A program made the position numbers and the translations under genes. Source: Eubacterium sp. (GTDB taxonomy: Bacteria; Bacillota; Clostridia; Oscillospirales; Acutalibacteraceae). From it: DNA of 57,114 nucleotides. The DNA lies in NCBI GenBank assembly GCA_022511225.1, contig JAFLRZ010000012.1:1-57114 (forward strand). Reading direction: 5' to 3'. The notes beneath the pieces are model-generated. The model was not told the DNA's origin. It made no database searches and worked only from the letters and a program-made list of their open reading frames with translations. Shown here piece by piece: positions 3,267 to 57,114 of this stretch (position 1 is the stretch's first letter; every line of letters starts with the position of its first letter).

Positions 3267-3467
3267 ATGAAAAAATATCGCGTGGTGGGATACATTCCAG
3301 CGGGCTTGCATCGAATGAAGCGCATCGAGAAGGTTGTGATAACATCCGATCCGCACCCTAACGATGATTCCGCTGTTGGGGCGTGGCTTGGGGCGCTTTT
3401 TGATGAAAGACTGCCGGGTTCGCCGTACGAAATCGAAAGCATAGAGGAGTTGAAAGACAATGATTGA
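3267..3467 (+). CDS. Hypothetical small protein
   Basis: 66 residues, not recognised. I take the ATG at 3267 (MKKYRVVGY), just after the previous stop and next to a GGCGGTG ribosome site. The N-terminus reads as a beta strand and the C-terminal half is acidic (YEIESIEELKDND). It overlaps the next gene by 8 bases, suggesting translational coupling. Confidence 0.6.
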   Translation: MKKYRVVGYIPAGLHRMKRIEKVVITSDPHPNDDSAVGAWLGALFDERLPGSPYEIESIEELKDND

Positions 3468-27997: not shown

Positions 27998-28041
27998 AAA
28001 TATTTCACCTTATTGAAAACGGTCAATAAGAAGAGCCAAAC

Positions 28042-28088
28042 GGGGCTGTCAGTAGAGTAGAAATACTTTATTGATAGCCCCATTTTTT
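28042..28088 (+). terminator. Strong terminator or attenuator hairpin inside the late operon
   Basis: GGGGCT...AGCCCC at 28042-28081 closes an 18-base stem with a few mismatches and a GAAA loop, followed by six T. No promoter was found after it, so it probably reduces rather than blocks expression of the downstream capsid genes, or is antiterminated. Confidence 0.75.
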
Positions 28089-28112: not shown

Positions 28113-28667
28113 ATGAAACTCAAAGACAAATTTAATTACGACATAGAGCCTTATCGCTCGTTGAGAGACAGCGCGAGAGTTGTCAGCAAAGAGTATTTGC
28201 AGGGCAATCGCTGTCTTGACGAGGCGAAAGAGTATGTCTACATAGAGCAGAGCTTGAAGTTTTGCTCGGAGATAGTTCACCGGCAAGCGCACAAGTTTTT
28301 GGAACTGCTCGACACGTTCGGCGATTTATTGCACGAGCGTCATCTCATGCAGGAGTACCCCGATACCGAAGAAATCGATTGGCGCGTAACATTCACGGAT
28401 ATGGACAGCGTTTTCGACTTTATAGTCAAGGTGCTTGAAAATATCGGCGAAGCACTGGAGAGCTTTCACGCGAAAACAGACAACGCGCAGTTTCGCCCTA
28501 TGGCGCTTAAGACAGAAGAACTTATGCTCATCAACAGCCAAGACCATACGATGTTTTTGGAAATGTGGGCGATATACGACCAACTCAACGAAAAGGGTAG
28601 TGCAGGAAGTCCGACGAGCTTTGACAGCTGGTGCGAAAAGCAACTTAGCGAGGAGGGCGCCGAATAA
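28113..28667 (+). CDS. Helical head-region protein, possibly ferritin-like
   Basis: This 184-residue protein is almost wholly helical. HRQAHKFLELLDTFGDLLHERH and VFDFIVKVLENIGEALESFHAK are spaced like helices of a Dps/ferritin four-helix bundle, with His and Glu at suitable positions. The similarity is weak and the metal site unproved. It directly precedes and abuts the protease/scaffold gene, so it could equally be a head morphogenesis protein. Confidence 0.5.
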   Translation: MKLKDKFNYDIEPYRSLRDSARVVSKEYLQGNRCLDEAKEYVYIEQSLKFCSEIVHRQAHKFLELLDTFGDLLHERHLMQEYPDTEEIDWRVTFTDMDSVFDFIVKVLENIGEALESFHAKTDNAQFRPMALKTEELMLINSQDHTMFLEMWAIYDQLNEKGSAGSPTSFDSWCEKQLSEEGAE

Positions 28668-51279: not shown

Positions 51280-52182
51280 TCAAGTAAACAGTTTATTCAA
51301 ATCTTGGCTAACTCGCTTGGGGCACAAGTGACTTGCATATATTACCGTAGTAGCGTAACTTGAATGCCCTAACACTTGTTGTATCTGTTCAAGTTTAGCG
51401 CCGCGAGTTAGAAGTAAAGATGCGAACGCATGTCGCAGATCGTGGGCGCCTATATCGTTGCGATTGAAAAGGCCTCGAATATATCCGCGTACAATTTTCG
51501 TGATATTCTGTCGAGTGTATGGCTTGCCGTCGTCATTAGCAAACAACAGCTCGTTCTCGTCGTAGCAATAGCTACCAAATCGACGATAGAGATACTCGGT
51601 GATAAATTGCTTAGAACGGTCGGGAAGTGTCGTAGAGCGCGATTTATCGCCTTTTGCGGACGTGTGAACGTTTATAGTGCCACCATCGAAGTCAATATCT
51701 TTTATTTTAAGGTGGGTGAGTTCGCTTACTCGCAACCCACTTTCGATAAGCAGAACGATAAGCGCCCGGTCGCGTAACGGCTGTTTCAGATACGGCGGCA
51801 TTTTGCCGTCAAGAATGGTTTGGATTTGCTGTTCCGTCAGCAGGTTGTATTCTATGCGTTCTTGCTTCGGTATATCTTCCTCAAGCACAGGCTGTTCAGT
51901 ATAAAACTTATGGTTGATGCACCATGTAAAGAACGAACGAAGAATTATAAGATAGTGCCGGAGCGTGTTATTTTTTGTGCCACGCTCTTTTACTGCCTTT
52001 GAGTAGTTAATGACCATTACGGCGGTAATGTCCGGCTGTTCGGTGTCGTTCTGTCCAAGCCACAAGGCAAAGTCATTGATGACTGTCGCGTACTTGTCAT
52101 ATGTGGCTTTACTCTTTGTTATGGTTTGCAAAGATGAAAGGTAAGCCGTCTTTATTTCGTTAAATTTTTCGTATGCTGTCAT
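51280..52182 (-). CDS. int: Tyrosine recombinase (integrase)
   Basis: 300 residues with an N-terminal SAM-like core-binding domain (1-100) and a full catalytic set: Arg151 in ESGLRVSEL, Lys177/Lys180 region, His247 and Arg250 in HDLRH, His273 in LGHSS and Tyr282 in VIYASH. No long arm-binding domain, so it is closer to XerC-type integrases. Would insert and excise the phage genome. ATG at 52182 behind AAGGAG; transcribed leftward behind three small ORFs from the promoter at 52850-52878. Confidence 0.93.
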   Translation of the reverse strand: MTAYEKFNEIKTAYLSSLQTITKSKATYDKYATVINDFALWLGQNDTEQPDITAVMVINYSKAVKERGTKNNTLRHYLIILRSFFTWCINHKFYTEQPVLEEDIPKQERIEYNLLTEQQIQTILDGKMPPYLKQPLRDRALIVLLIESGLRVSELTHLKIKDIDFDGGTINVHTSAKGDKSRSTTLPDRSKQFITEYLYRRFGSYCYDENELLFANDDGKPYTRQNITKIVRGYIRGLFNRNDIGAHDLRHAFASLLLTRGAKLEQIQQVLGHSSYATTVIYASHLCPKRVSQDLNKLFT

Positions 52183-54243: not shown

Positions 54244-55005
54244 ATGACATCAGGAAAGTTTTGGGCATATACTGGAATAGTATTAGCTGTAGAGGCTTTT
54301 ATTTACACCATTTTGCCGGGATGGGCATTATTCCTTATCGGGATTGGAATATTTGGCTTTTGCATTGTATTAACTTTAATTATTAATGCTATATCTAATA
54401 CTCATCATAAGTGGGTTGACAAGATATATTACTTCTTTACAAGGCGCAAAGAAGATTATATAATACTTGATGAGACTTCTAAGTATTGCATAACCAGCCA
54501 AACTGCAGCGGAGTATGATCGAACTATAAATGTTATAAATAAAAAGGATGGTTCAACGAAAATTTATGAGGGTAGGATTGTTTGGGATCAGGATAATGAT
54601 TTAAATGTGATAGGCAAGTGTGACAGAGAATATAAATTTGAGATATCGCAAGATTTAAAATGGACGAACACTATTTTTACATCGAAAAATATATTACACA
54701 CAAATGACAAATCGCAAATCAACTTTAAAATAGATAATTTACATATCTCCCAGTTAAAAAAGAAATCATTTCTCTATTGCAAGGTGAGAGATAAGATTAA
54801 ATTTTTAAGATTAGTTGTGGAAGTGGAACCATCTTTAAAACCGGCTCCCAAAGCGCTCTTTAAAGTTTTAAATGCTAACGGGGAAGAAATTCCTAATACG
54901 CGGGAAGAAATTGAATTGGCTCCTGACGGTAAGACTTTTGAAAAAACTATTACTTGTCCGCGAATAGGACGGCGCTATGCAATCCAATGGGACTACGAAA
55001 TATAA
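54244..55005 (+). CDS. Two-TM membrane protein with soluble beta-rich domain
   Basis: 253 residues. Two adjacent N-terminal membrane helices (about residues 8-28 and 30-52, WALFLIGIGIFGFCIVLTLI) are followed by a basic stretch and a roughly 180-residue beta-rich cytoplasmic domain ending RRYAIQWDYEI. The layout resembles membrane effectors such as Cap15-type 2TM-beta-barrel proteins, but no partner enzyme is next to it and I see no diagnostic motif. AT-rich, single gene with its own promoter and terminator: a typical phage moron. Confidence 0.65.
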   Translation: MTSGKFWAYTGIVLAVEAFIYTILPGWALFLIGIGIFGFCIVLTLIINAISNTHHKWVDKIYYFFTRRKEDYIILDETSKYCITSQTAAEYDRTINVINKKDGSTKIYEGRIVWDQDNDLNVIGKCDREYKFEISQDLKWTNTIFTSKNILHTNDKSQINFKIDNLHISQLKKKSFLYCKVRDKIKFLRLVVEVEPSLKPAPKALFKVLNANGEEIPNTREEIELAPDGKTFEKTITCPRIGRRYAIQWDYEI

Positions 55006-55136
55006 AGGAGTATTTTATGGGTGAATAAAACAGAACATCGCACACCTCTTTTCAGTGCGTAGTATATGAGTCCTATCAAATATAAATGAATTTAAATACG
55101 CTACAAACTAAAATTATTTTAACTGACTTTGAAAAA

Positions 55137-55168
55137 GGTAGTCTTCTTTTGAAAACTGTCTTTTTTTA
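55137..55168 (+). terminator. Terminator before the second late promoter
   Basis: GGTAGTCTTC, TTTT loop, GAAAACTGTC pair with one mismatch and two G-T pairs, then seven T. It ends the membrane-protein transcript and lies 13 bases before the promoter element, the same order as at 25701-25776. Confidence 0.65.
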
Positions 55169-55180
55169 TTAAAAAAATTT

Positions 55181-55221
55181 TTGGCGTAAAGTGAATCACA
55201 AGGTTTTTCGTGTGATATAAT
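55181..55221 (+). promoter_or_regulatory. Late promoter, copy 2, driving the non-coding RNA
   Basis: TTGGCGTAAAGTGAATCA at 55181-55198 and TGATATAAT ending at 55221, the same element and the same 35-base spacing as copy 1 before the portal gene. The bases between differ. Predicted start of transcription is about 55228, the first base of a 12-pair helix. Confidence 0.75.
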
Positions 55222-55369
55222 GGCTCTGCAAAGCGCAAGTTCACCTTCTTTTCTTGCGACTTTGCGCATTTCTCTTATTGCGCAGTGGTGCTTTATCTGC
55301 TATTGTCGCGAGCGGAAAGAGTCGAAAAAGCTCTTATGTCGAGATAAAGAAACGGTAAGAGCAATATAT

Positions 55370-55465
55370 CGCGGAGTATGGCATAGCCGTGGTTAAATTT
55401 GTTTTGGCTGTTTCTCACACTTGTCCCCGGAACAAATTTTGCAAGTTCAAATCTTGCCTCCGCGT
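55370..55465 (+). other. tRNA-like domain A (abnormal body)
   Basis: A perfect 7-bp acceptor (CGCGGAG with CTCCGCG) directly follows a perfect T-arm (GCAAG, loop TTCAAAT, CTTGC), exactly as in tRNA. The 64 bases between hold GGC-ATA-GCC and a 13-pair stem (AAATTTGTTTTGG with CCGGAACAAATTT) with a 19-base loop, not D and anticodon arms. No CCA encoded. Confidence 0.6.
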
Positions 55466-55543
55466 CAAGAGGTCGGGTCGCACCCGAATGATGTGAGAGT
55501 TATGCGCGACACCTTACAGAGAATGACAAAAATTAAGCGCCAT

Positions 55544-55618
55544 TGCGGAATAGAGTAAATGGTAACTCGGTCGGCTCATGCCCGATTGATTGTGGTCCGA
55601 GTCCACATTCCGCTACCA
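55544..55618 (+). tRNA. tRNA with CAT anticodon (Met or lysidine-type Ile)
   Basis: Clear cloverleaf: D-arm GAGT/ACTC with GGTA loop, anticodon stem GTCGG/CCGAT with loop CTCATGC, T-arm TGTGG/CCACA with TCCGAGT, discriminator A and encoded CCA. Acceptor TGCGGAA/TTCCGCT has a U-U mismatch at 1-72, recalling initiator tRNAs, but the anticodon stem lacks the three G-C pairs of initiators. Embedded in the structured RNA region. Confidence 0.85.
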
Positions 55619-55793
55619 AGGCAGACTGCGATGTACAGCAATGTATATGTGTGCCACCGTCAATGTTCGTGGAGCAGTAGAACAGACCACGCTATGGTGT
55701 AAAAGCGCGGAGGACGTAAAGTCGTTTCAATAAAAAGCGGCAAGATTGGTCGGCCACATAGGTGGACTACAACGAGAACCATACACCCGACAT

Positions 55794-55862
55794 GGATAGT
55801 GCAGATTTGTGAGTGGTAACGTGAGTTATCCAAAATGGGTTTGATTCCCATACTGTCCGCCA
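55794..55862 (+). other. tRNA-like domain B (no anticodon arm)
   Basis: Acceptor GGATAGT/ACTGTCC (7 pairs, one G-T), T-arm ATGGG, TTTGATT, CCCAT, discriminator G and CCA are in exact tRNA register. Only 34 bases lie between acceptor and T-arm. They form a hairpin GGTAAC-GTGA-GTTATCC with a GNRA loop, so there is no usable anticodon. Confidence 0.6.
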
Positions 55863-56250
55863 TTGGACTTGCCGTGTAAAACGAGGGTTCGTTTTGAAAC
55901 CAGAGAAACGTAAGAAACTCGGAAGTCGTATCGGAAGTCCTGACAAACAAAGCCGTGTCGCCTCAACGGATATAAAAAGAGGAAGTCAAGTGCTACAAGA
56001 GCTTTTCCGCCAATACTTTTTCGCCCATAACTGCTGGGCTTTGCGGAAAATACAGCCGGCCTCGCGGAGTAGCTAACCGCCGAACAGCGAGATAGGGTAG
56101 GCTCGCTTGGGAAAAGGGTTGCAGCTTGGCGACAACGTTGTTACATCTCACCTACCAAGTTGTACTTTCGCTTACGTATAAACGGAATACTTCCGGGCGG
56201 TGTACAACGCTTAAAGGTATGACTTTAAGGTGGACAGCAACCTTTGCGCC

Positions 56251-56375
56251 GAATGGCTCACGCAAGCACTTTCTTGTTAATGGAGATATAAATTCGGCGC
56301 CTATCTGATTGGTGCAGGTTTGCAGATGACAACAATGGTTGTCGGAAGCGGGTTCGATTCTCGCGCCATTCTCCA
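56251..56375 (+). other. tRNA-like domain C (90-base insert)
   Basis: Acceptor GAATGGC/GCCATTC (perfect 7), T-arm GCGGG, TTCGATT, CTCGC, discriminator T and CCA, in exact register. The 90 bases between contain GCGCC/GGTGC, ATCTG/CAGAT and a perfect GACAAC-AATG-GTTGTC hairpin. The insert is too long for a class II tRNA body. Confidence 0.6.
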
Positions 56376-56415
56376 GACTGATTCCGAAATGCTTGCGGGG
56401 CTTCGGAACGGGTTT

Positions 56416-56461
56416 AACGGCTTTCCTAACTTGCGGACGCGCAAAACAAAAACCGTTTTTT
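56416..56461 (+). terminator. Terminator of the structured RNA
   Basis: AACGG (56416-56420) pairs with CCGTT (56453-56457) around an inner TTGCG-GACG-CGCAA hairpin (56431-56444), then T-run to 56461. It ends the RNA 30 bases before the next gene. Confidence 0.6.
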
Positions 56462-56490
56462 GTGAATAACTCTTTCGGAGCATAAAATAT

Positions 56491-56874
56491 ATGACAACAA
56501 AAAGACAGCTTGAGAAAAAGCAAGAAGAACTCGACGCTATCAAGTGGTGTGATAGTGAATTGAGTAGGGATACTTGCGGTACATATAATTATTGTGTCAA
56601 ATGCGATAAGACAAAGGAATATCCGTGTGCAACCGCATATTACGCTTTTAACAGCACGGCTGCGGAATCAAAAGGCGAGCTTAAAGTAAATGTGGAACTT
56701 TCTGCTCTCGCATTAAGATTGCAGGCGCTACGAATAGCTAAAAATCTTTCGATAAAGCAAGCTGCAAGTCGGTGCAAAATTTCCGAGAAGAAACTCTTTG
56801 AATATGAAAACGACAAGGATGTTCCGACCGAAGATACACTAAAACGCATACTCTCTGTGTTGGAAAAGCGATAA
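56491..56874 (+). CDS. XRE-type helix-turn-helix protein with N-terminal cysteine cluster
   Basis: 127 residues behind CGGAG. The N-terminal 55 residues hold five cysteines (WCDSE, TCGTYNYCVKCDK, PCATAYYA), probably a zinc site. Residues 70-125 are an XRE-like helix-turn-helix: LALRLQALRIAKNLSIKQAASRC, then YENDKDVPTEDTL. It likely regulates phage or neighbouring genes. It may be expressed by read-through from the RNA unit, as no promoter of its own is clear. Confidence 0.7.
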   Translation: MTTKRQLEKKQEELDAIKWCDSELSRDTCGTYNYCVKCDKTKEYPCATAYYAFNSTAAESKGELKVNVELSALALRLQALRIAKNLSIKQAASRCKISEKKLFEYENDKDVPTEDTLKRILSVLEKR

Positions 56875-57038: not shown

Positions 57039-57114
57039 GCCGGAGTAGCTCAATCGGTAGAGCAACTGACTTGTAATCAGTAGGTTGCGGGTTCAAGTCC
57101 CATCTTCGGCTCCA
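57039..57114 (+). tRNA. tRNA-Thr (TGT anticodon)
   Basis: Complete cloverleaf: acceptor GCCGGAG/CTTCGGC, D-arm with AATCGGTAGA loop, anticodon stem ACTGA/TCAGT with loop CTTGTAA, T-loop TTCAAGT, discriminator T and encoded CCA at the last base of the window. It may be a host gene flanking the element or a phage tRNA; the window ends before this can be settled. Confidence 0.95.

What the first reader, a model, noticed from the sequence alone, without database searches (positions are those of the whole stretch)
55228..56461. Large ornate non-coding RNA unit at the phage's right end
A promoter-to-terminator unit of about 1.23 kb has no credible protein but many perfect helices, several long-range and closing in a consistent order. 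The first helix starts at the predicted transcription start. Phage location and neighbouring tRNA fit the GOLLD and ROOL classes of giant RNAs, but several tRNA-like domains within one such transcript could make this a new class or an unusual hybrid.
Basis: partly seen in the sequence, partly recalled or inferred. Interest (0 to 1): 0.88.

Follow-up and report, generated by a model that had tools for sequence, protein, structure and literature searches.

The report
Structured RNA linker between phage tRNAs
The stretch is not one giant RNA but a prophage cluster of tRNA and tRNA-like genes, and wedged between two of them sits a small knotted RNA of an apparently undescribed family that recurs beside tRNAs in many other phages.

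Summary
The 1.23-kb unit is non-coding and carries four tRNA T-arm-plus-acceptor domains (shuffles average 0.025).

The real find lies inside it. Window 55469-55543, between tRNA-like domain 1 and tRNA-Met, belongs to an RNA family without an Rfam match. I collected 42 distinct core sequences, 39 from IMG/VR viral contigs. It has helices P2 and P3, a conserved joint, a variable helix P4, and a pseudoknot between P3 loop and 3' tail. Outside P4, 9 of 15 pairs show double-sided changes; with P4, 14 of 20. A tRNA or tRNA-like domain ends at its start in 34 of 42 (background 64 of 2138). The next tRNA starts 3-6 nt after the pseudoknot in 20 of 23 elements with a tRNA found downstream, of 30 examined. 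The window copy lacks P4 but keeps the pseudoknot. Function is inferred: insulation and processing of phage tRNA precursors.

The parts
55213..55221 (+). putative extended -10 promoter (TGATATAAT)
   Evidence: sequence; TGNTATAAT occurs 4 times on the + strand of the window; weak
55370..55468 (+). tRNA-like domain 1: 7-bp acceptor 55370-55376/55458-55464, T-arm 55441-55457, 13-bp elongated anticodon-like arm, TCAA in place of NCCA
   Evidence: Rfam tRNA only 15.5 bits over 55389-55458
55469..55543 (+). member of the undescribed inter-tRNA RNA family (whole element)
   Evidence: R1 73.7 bits over 55467-55533; profile built without the window row finds it at E 8.2e-17
55473..55487 (+). hairpin P2 (55473-55477 with 55483-55487)
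   Evidence: double-sided changes in all 5 pairs across 41 members
55493..55517 (+). hairpin P3 (55493-55497 with 55513-55517; one G-U pair)
   Evidence: double-sided changes in 2 of 6 pairs
55504..55540 (+). pseudoknot: P3 loop GCGC 55504-55507 with tail GCGC 55537-55540
   Evidence: coordinates, assigned by eye; family pseudoknot
55518..55529 (+). conserved joint AGAGAATGACAA
   Evidence: most of its columns invariant or nearly so in A2
55544..55618 (+). tRNA-Met-like gene (CAT), CCA encoded, anticodon loop CTCATGC
   Evidence: ARAGORN; Rfam tRNA 50.8 bits
55794..55862 (+). tRNA-like domain 3: acceptor 55794-55800/55852-55858 (one G-U), T-arm 55835-55851 (one T-loop mismatch), GCCA end, no canonical anticodon arm by eye
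56251..56375 (+). tRNA-like domain 4: acceptor 56251-56257/56365-56371, T-arm 56348-56364, TCCA end, ~90 nt between acceptor and T-arm
56407..56461 (+). putative AT-rich terminator stem with T-run
   Evidence: minimum-energy fold; not listed by the terminator scan

Best explanation
55228-56461 is a prophage tRNA operon: one precursor RNA carrying, in order, tRNA-like domain 1, a structured linker RNA, tRNA-Met, tRNA-like domain 3 and tRNA-like domain 4. Shown by sequence: the four T-arm/acceptor domains, and the linker's membership of a conserved, pseudoknotted RNA family that fills the gap between tRNAs with near-fixed spacing. Inferred: that it is one transcript, that host RNase P (5' ends) and RNase Z or exonucleases (3' ends) cut it, and that the linker works in cis. 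Its compact fold (P2, P3, P4, pseudoknot) would keep adjacent tRNA and tRNA-like domains from misfolding together and present the 3' end of the upstream domain and the 5' end of the downstream tRNA for cutting; it may persist afterwards as a small stable RNA. In the window copy P4 is gone, perhaps by deletion between the two TGACAA-type repeats that flank P4 in several relatives, while P2, P3, the joint, the pseudoknot and the 3-nt spacing to the tRNA remain, so P4 would be dispensable.
For: Family: 41 distinct cores in A2, 98.9% of cells paired against 91.4% shuffled, 7 of 11 pairs changed on both sides. P4 of 6 bp or more followed by AA in 30 of 42 members against 13% of shuffled sequences. 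Thirty elements in A3: 95.9% of cells paired against 81.0% shuffled; double-sided changes in 4 of 5 P2 pairs, 2 of 6 P3 pairs, 3 of 4 pseudoknot pairs and 5 of 5 P4 pairs; score 0.415 against 0.149; partners slid by 1-3 columns pair in only 30-51% of cells. Upstream tRNA or tRNA-like domain in 34 of 42 (background 64 of 2138). Next tRNA 3-6 nt after the pseudoknot in 20 of the 23 elements, of 30 examined, with a downstream ARAGORN tRNA. Window member found by a profile built without it, E 8.2e-17. L121 was found by R1, which holds neither the P4 helix nor the tail, and has both.
Against: No transcript data; the cis-processing role is inference from position only. The pseudoknot was first seen by eye on the same sequences that were then tested, and the shuffles do not allow for relatedness. 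A3 holds, besides the window, only members chosen for having P4 followed by AA, so P4 pairing is partly by selection; 12 of 42 members failed the P4 test. By eye, at least 4 of the 42 (L043, L048, L088, L101) have a ribosome-binding-site-like sequence and an ATG soon after the tail rather than a tRNA. In 8 of 42 no upstream domain was detected (one, L081, is cut by the contig end). The window copy has lost P4 and may be decaying. No relatives of the spacers 55619-55793 and 55863-56250 were found, so nothing shows that they are functional.
Confidence: 0.5

Rival explanations
1. A single giant ornate RNA of the GOLLD/ROOL kind (possibly a cage-forming RNA) covering the whole 1.23 kb.
For: Phage location beside tRNAs; a tRNA inside the unit, which the cryo-EM paper says also occurs in GOLLD linkers (PMC12286853, passages); moderate excess of 7-bp helices.
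Against: No GOLLD or ROOL match at gathering or E<=10; their models find nothing in the own genome at E<=10 (the ROOL search rang in none of its control genomes either). Long-range helices of 8 bp or more at chance level, folding energies like controls, homology confined to 55430-55574.
Confidence: 0.05
2. The linker family is a self-cleaving ribozyme that separates phage tRNAs: compact, pseudoknotted, one very variable hairpin, many invariant unpaired bases, and bounded by tRNAs.
For: Pseudoknot plus conserved joint; P4 of very different lengths (5-106 nt inside the helix); a RAGATH-21 match lies about 250 nt before one member (L037). That such features resemble known self-cleaving ribozymes is recalled.
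Against: No Rfam ribozyme family matches the window element or two other members at E<=10. A 2',3'-cyclic phosphate would hinder CCA addition to those upstream tRNAs that do not encode CCA (recalled chemistry). No cleavage site is pinned down by conservation.
Confidence: 0.15
3. The linker is a stand-alone small RNA (for example a decoy, or a regulator of host tRNA enzymes or defence nucleases) that uses flanking tRNAs and tRNA-like domains only as processing punctuation.
For: Close abutment; 18 of the 34 upstream domains are not reported by ARAGORN, and some are too short for a full cloverleaf (L070, L092, L108 at 61-64 nt), so they look like signals rather than decoders.
Against: The near-fixed 3-4 nt spacing to the next tRNA suggests a role in cis; by eye no long single-stranded seed other than AGAGAAUGACAAUG.
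Confidence: 0.25
4. Ordinary decaying phage tRNA pseudogenes with random spacers; the linker in the window is a relic.
For: Three of the four domains do not pass as tRNAs and P4 is missing; the other spacers have no relatives found.
Against: Acceptors of domains 1 and 4 are 7 of 7 Watson-Crick and all four T-stems are fully paired; the window linker keeps P2, P3, the pseudoknot and the 3-nt spacing.
Confidence: 0.2

Closest known systems
GOLLD (Rfam RF02032)
   Same: phage or prophage RNA associated with tRNAs, sometimes with a tRNA inside it (PMC12286853 passages)
   Different: no model match; the elements are about 75-190 nt, not over 800
ROOL (Rfam RF03087)
   Same: prophage RNA often near tRNA islands, with pseudoknots (PMC12286853 passages)
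   Different: no model match (in one search no control genome rang); much smaller
tmRNA (RF00023)
   Same: tRNA-like domain with a long insert in place of the anticodon arm, near a pseudoknot
   Different: only 13.4 bits over 56328-56365 against a gathering score of 47; ARAGORN reports no tmRNA
Phage tRNA arrays
   Same: several tRNA genes in a row in a phage; one relative (L121) has nine ARAGORN tRNAs
   Different: a conserved structured RNA fills the gap between tRNAs, and many domains are tRNA-like rather than tRNAs
T4 stable RNAs C and D of the tRNA cluster (recalled, not looked up)
   Same: small stable RNAs of unknown role made from a phage tRNA cluster
   Different: not compared here; no sequence relation tested

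Membership tests
GOLLD | match to covariance model RF02032 | tested here: not met
   window; own genome, E<=10
GOLLD | large (many over 800 nt), conserved 3' region, elaborate covarying structure | tested here: not met
   long-range helices of 8 bp or more at chance level; homology only in 55430-55574
ROOL | match to covariance model RF03087 | tested here: not met
   no control genome rang, so it is weaker than the cmscan results
ROOL | oligomeric cage | not testable with these tools
   needs cryo-EM or native gels
OLE / HEARO | match to their Rfam models | tested here: not met
   whole-library cmscan; no accession-specific search was run
tRNA | cloverleaf scoring above the gathering score | tested here: inconclusive
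   met for 55544-55615 (50.8 bits) and 57039-57111; not met for domain 1 (15.5 bits) or for domains 3 and 4
new inter-tRNA RNA family | P2 and P3 with conserved joint (model R1) | tested here: met
   73.7 bits; E 8.2e-17 with the window row left out
new inter-tRNA RNA family | P4 helix of >=6 bp after the joint, followed by AA | tested here: not met
   absent in the window; present in 30 of 42 members against 13% of shuffles
new inter-tRNA RNA family | pseudoknot between P3 loop and tail | tested here: met
   GCGC 55504-55507 / GCGC 55537-55540; assigned by eye in the window, since A3 leaves the window tail unaligned and one search does not include the window
new inter-tRNA RNA family | directly after a tRNA/tRNA-like domain and directly before a tRNA | tested here: met

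The most novel reading that the evidence does not exclude
The family is a new class of tRNA-linked functional RNA, plausibly a new self-processing ribozyme or a composite of tRNA-like domain plus pseudoknot, which phages use to split and protect their tRNAs during infection.
Probability: 0.17. Interest if true: 0.9.

Novelty: categorically new. Interest (0 to 1): 0.72.

Why it matters
A compact, pseudoknotted RNA family with strong covariation, no Rfam match, and close placement between tRNAs in many viral contigs is a testable unknown: does it cut, insulate, or act as a free RNA? Phage tRNA arrays are usually read as codon supply (recalled). The many non-canonical tRNA-like domains next to the element suggest a second use of the tRNA fold. 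It also gives a short target for in vitro work (about 100 nt, for example L081 or L088).

Tried and rejected
GOLLD/ROOL/other Rfam membership: rejected.

Homologues of the whole unit: none in phages or plasmids. In genomes, 98 relatives, 200 of the family and 394 of the order gave, apart from the window itself, only short matches. G078 is a tRNA-Met, and G433, G434 and G404 match the same tRNA part (not inspected). G039 is a chance match inside a gene that looked like a GTPase to me (recalled). G604 is the real lead.

Phage relatives through proteins (ORFs 54244, 56491, 44414 and 25788): no relatives in viral contigs; one distant phage record each for 44414 and 25788. Record MT835520 was fetched and gave only one R1 row, at 12.6 bits.

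Dropped as chance: L122/G649 (25.2 bits, looks protein-coding by eye); L125/G306 (23.5 bits, in a region covered by a 535-aa ORF); L067 Cellulomonas (no R1 row at E<=1). From (31 stretches), L034, L035, L038, L039, L041, L045, L046, L049, L053, L059, L060, L062 and L063 lacked the rest of the motif by eye, and L057 and L061 were left out of the alignment as near-copies of L042 and L052. From (43 stretches), 20 looked protein-coding or unrelated; R1 was run on five of these 20 (L093, L094, L099, L109, L116: best rows 14.7-20.7 bits) and on L053 (19.0), L038 and L039 (no row). From (24 stretches), L126-L129 scored 15.7-19.6 bits; the other 20 were already known.

A closing helix P1 around P2-P4 was looked for by eye and is not consistent. 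Literature: searches showed no paper that, by title or abstract start, describes the motif (one search lists nine papers holding one of five motif strings, all with unrelated titles). PMC12286853 and PMC8040213 were seen as passages, everything else as search listings.

Full report
Setting. The window is a whole contig (C4, 57,114 nt, of an unnamed 2.2-Mb genome) and carries phage genes: portal-like, tail tape measure, tail protein, an integrase at 51280-52182 on the minus strand and a helix-turn-helix protein at 56491-56874. It ends on a tRNA-Thr at 57039-57114. The gap 55005-56491 contains the reported unit.

Check of the observation. The unit is non-coding and G+C-richer than its flanks, and lies after a perfect extended -10 box (four such boxes on the + strand of the window, so weak). 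A search for a fully paired T-arm (7-nt loop of T-loop type, one mismatch allowed) directly followed by a 7-nt strand fully paired to an upstream 7-nt strand finds four cases in 55151-56480, at T-arm starts 55441, 55591, 55835 and 56348. Dinucleotide shuffles give 0.025 on average and never more than 1 in 200; the rest of the 57-kb window gives one more, on the other strand. Three of the four end in NCCA (ACCA, GCCA, TCCA) and the first in TCAA. Within the unit only 55544-55618 passes as a tRNA (ARAGORN Met, CAT; Rfam 50.8 bits). In the strict search its acceptor paired better with a far strand at 55311; I read this as chance, since ARAGORN's acceptor starts at 55544.

What does not hold is the giant ornate RNA. 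Perfect Watson-Crick helices of 8 bp or more with over 100 nt between arms number 8 against 8.8 in shuffles. Results in the other direction: 7-bp-or-more helices are moderately enriched (far 47 against 33.9, 6 of 200 shuffles reach it; near 13 against 6.2, 2 of 200), and near helices of 8 and 9 bp or more slightly (14 and 11 of 200). Folding energy in 14 sub-windows inside the unit has mean z -0.47, against -0.46 in 40 control sub-windows (one outlier of -8.5 among them). For the unit, Rfam 15 gives no family but tRNA at gathering; at E<=10 it adds a weak second tRNA over domain 1 (15.5 bits), a weak tmRNA piece over domain 4 (13.4 bits, gathering 47) and two snoRNA-type matches far below gathering. 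ROOL and GOLLD models find nothing in the own genome (for ROOL no control genome rang).

The lead. A DNA search of 394 genomes of the order returned, besides tRNA matches, one place in G604 that matched 55445-55529, beyond a tRNA. It is a tRNA array (L027). The shared stretch was turned into patterns and sought in viral contigs and in genome contigs. After dropping chance hits and near-copies (listed under Tried and rejected), 41 distinct core sequences were aligned (A2: the window, L027 and 39 IMG/VR loci) and a model built (R1). R1 on 57 sources gives 52 rows at 59.8 bits or more. Three of these are re-fetched copies (L064 and L068 of L027's place, L069 of L044's contig, judged by equal contig length), leaving 49 contigs with the window. 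The next row is 36.9 bits (L066), then 14.9. R1 then found one more, L121, among 391 class genomes, making 42 distinct cores. A profile built without the window row finds the window at E 8.2e-17.

Structure of the family. P2 (5 bp): all five pairs have double-sided changes; P3: two of six; 98.9% of cells paired against 91.4% shuffled. RNAalifold predicts the same two helices unaided, with one more outer P3 pair and without the inner 33-48 pair. Caveat: parts of P2 and P3 were fixed by the search patterns, so variation there is under-sampled; one search's pattern left most of P3 free and brought in P3 exchanges (GTGTG/CACAC, GTGGG/CCCAC, GTCAG/CTGAC). After the joint, P4 (6 bp or more, followed by AA) is present in 30 of 42 members against 13% of shuffles, with widely different sequences. 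The tail after P4 (AA-NNGC) pairs with the P3 loop (GCNN). I saw this by eye on these sequences and then tested it. Collapsed to 12 distinct combinations, 5 are complementary (mean 0.92, 1 of 10,000). Of the nine failures, several look by eye like one-base shifts; L071 (P4 misread) and L073 do not fit, and L086, outside that set, does not fit by eye.

On 30 elements (A3), 95.9% of cells pair against 81.0% shuffled; double-sided changes occur in 14 of 20 pairs (P2 4 of 5, P3 2 of 6, pseudoknot 3 of 4, P4 5 of 5); partners slid by 1-3 columns fall to 30-51%. A3 holds the window and 29 members chosen for having P4 followed by AA (L071 left out), so its P4 count is biased by selection; without P4 the count is 9 of 15. 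Related sequences are in the set (for example L042, L044, L047), so cells are not independent events and the shuffles are not a probability.

Placement. A T-arm plus acceptor (looser rule) ends at the element's start in 34 of 42, against 64 of 2138 random places in the same loci; 7 of the 34 have NCCA. ARAGORN reports only 16 of these upstream domains, three of them as tRNA-???; others are too short for a full cloverleaf or longer than usual (partner choices above 300 nt there are probably spurious). Downstream, a tRNA starts within 250 nt in 28 of 42. Of the 30 elements of A3, 23 have a downstream ARAGORN tRNA in range, and in 20 of these it starts 3-6 nt after the pseudoknot's last base; the other three gaps are 19, 42 and 80 nt. 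By eye, L043, L048, L088 and L101 have a ribosome-binding-site-like stretch and an ATG soon after the tail.

The window copy. P2 55473-55477/55483-55487, P3 55493-55497/55513-55517 with a G-U pair, pseudoknot GCGC 55504-55507/GCGC 55537-55540, and 3 nt to tRNA-Met. P4 is absent. Several relatives have two TGACAA repeats flanking P4 (L027, L036, L037, L051); a deletion between such repeats would give the window's form (inference). The other spacers, 55619-55793 and 55863-56250, match nothing in the 44 loci compared.

Distribution. R1 matches over 59 bits: own genome only in 80 genomes of the genus and 398 of the phylum; own plus G604 in 384 of the order; own plus G896 in 391 of the class. Sets overlap, and these searches used stricter filters that lose weak matches. 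Two further matches at E<=0.001 (G649, G306) I count as chance. Two members used as 73-75-nt queries have no match in 50,697 phage records. Rarity in genomes and frequency in viral contigs suggest a phage-borne element rather than a host gene.

Function. No tool here tests it. Position argues for a cis role in tRNA precursors or for tRNA-punctuated release of a small RNA; a ribozyme is possible. Confidence in the family and structure is high (about 0.9); confidence in the mechanism is moderate to low.

Novelty. No Rfam 15 family but tRNA matches the element region in the window, L051 or L056 at relevant scores, nor at gathering in 17 related loci, where the non-tRNA matches (RAGATH-21, int-alpA, GP20-b) lie elsewhere or, for GP20-b, after the next tRNA. 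Paper searches showed nothing on it. The human-microbiome catalogue of 3,161 candidate RNAs (PMC8040213, passages only) could contain a member in its tables, which I could not read.

Noticed in passing
L066:100-238 (uncultured Eisenbergiella MAG): Two CRISPR-type repeats, and about 35 nt after the last repeat match the P2-P3 part of the family (36.9 bits; sequence): it looks like a CRISPR spacer taken from a phage member.
   Followed up: partly
L027:1883-1947, L037 about 3305-3366, L058: A second recurrent spacer (GCATTYC...GGAATGC, 74-75% identity of L027 to the other two) lies directly before a tRNA in L027 and L037; perhaps another inter-tRNA RNA family.
   Followed up: no
L054, L087, L102 (about 160 nt upstream of the element); L042, L047, L058: Two more recurrent spacer sequences shared between different loci of the set.
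   Followed up: no
L027 about 2181-2454: By eye, a tRNA-Leu-like gene with an insert of about 200 nt in place of its anticodon arm; L027 had no Rfam intron match at gathering.
   Followed up: no
L121:1-565: A reverse-transcriptase-like reading frame (YADD motif by eye) lies upstream of the nine-tRNA array that holds a family member.
   Followed up: no
window 28006-28053: gut-2 RNA (Rfam RF02990, 48.7 bits) in the prophage, between the portal-like gene and ORF 28113-28667.
   Followed up: no
window 57039-57114: An intact tRNA-Thr is the last feature of the contig, about 5 kb from the integrase, possibly the attachment site; several other contigs of this genome have tRNAs at an end.
   Followed up: no
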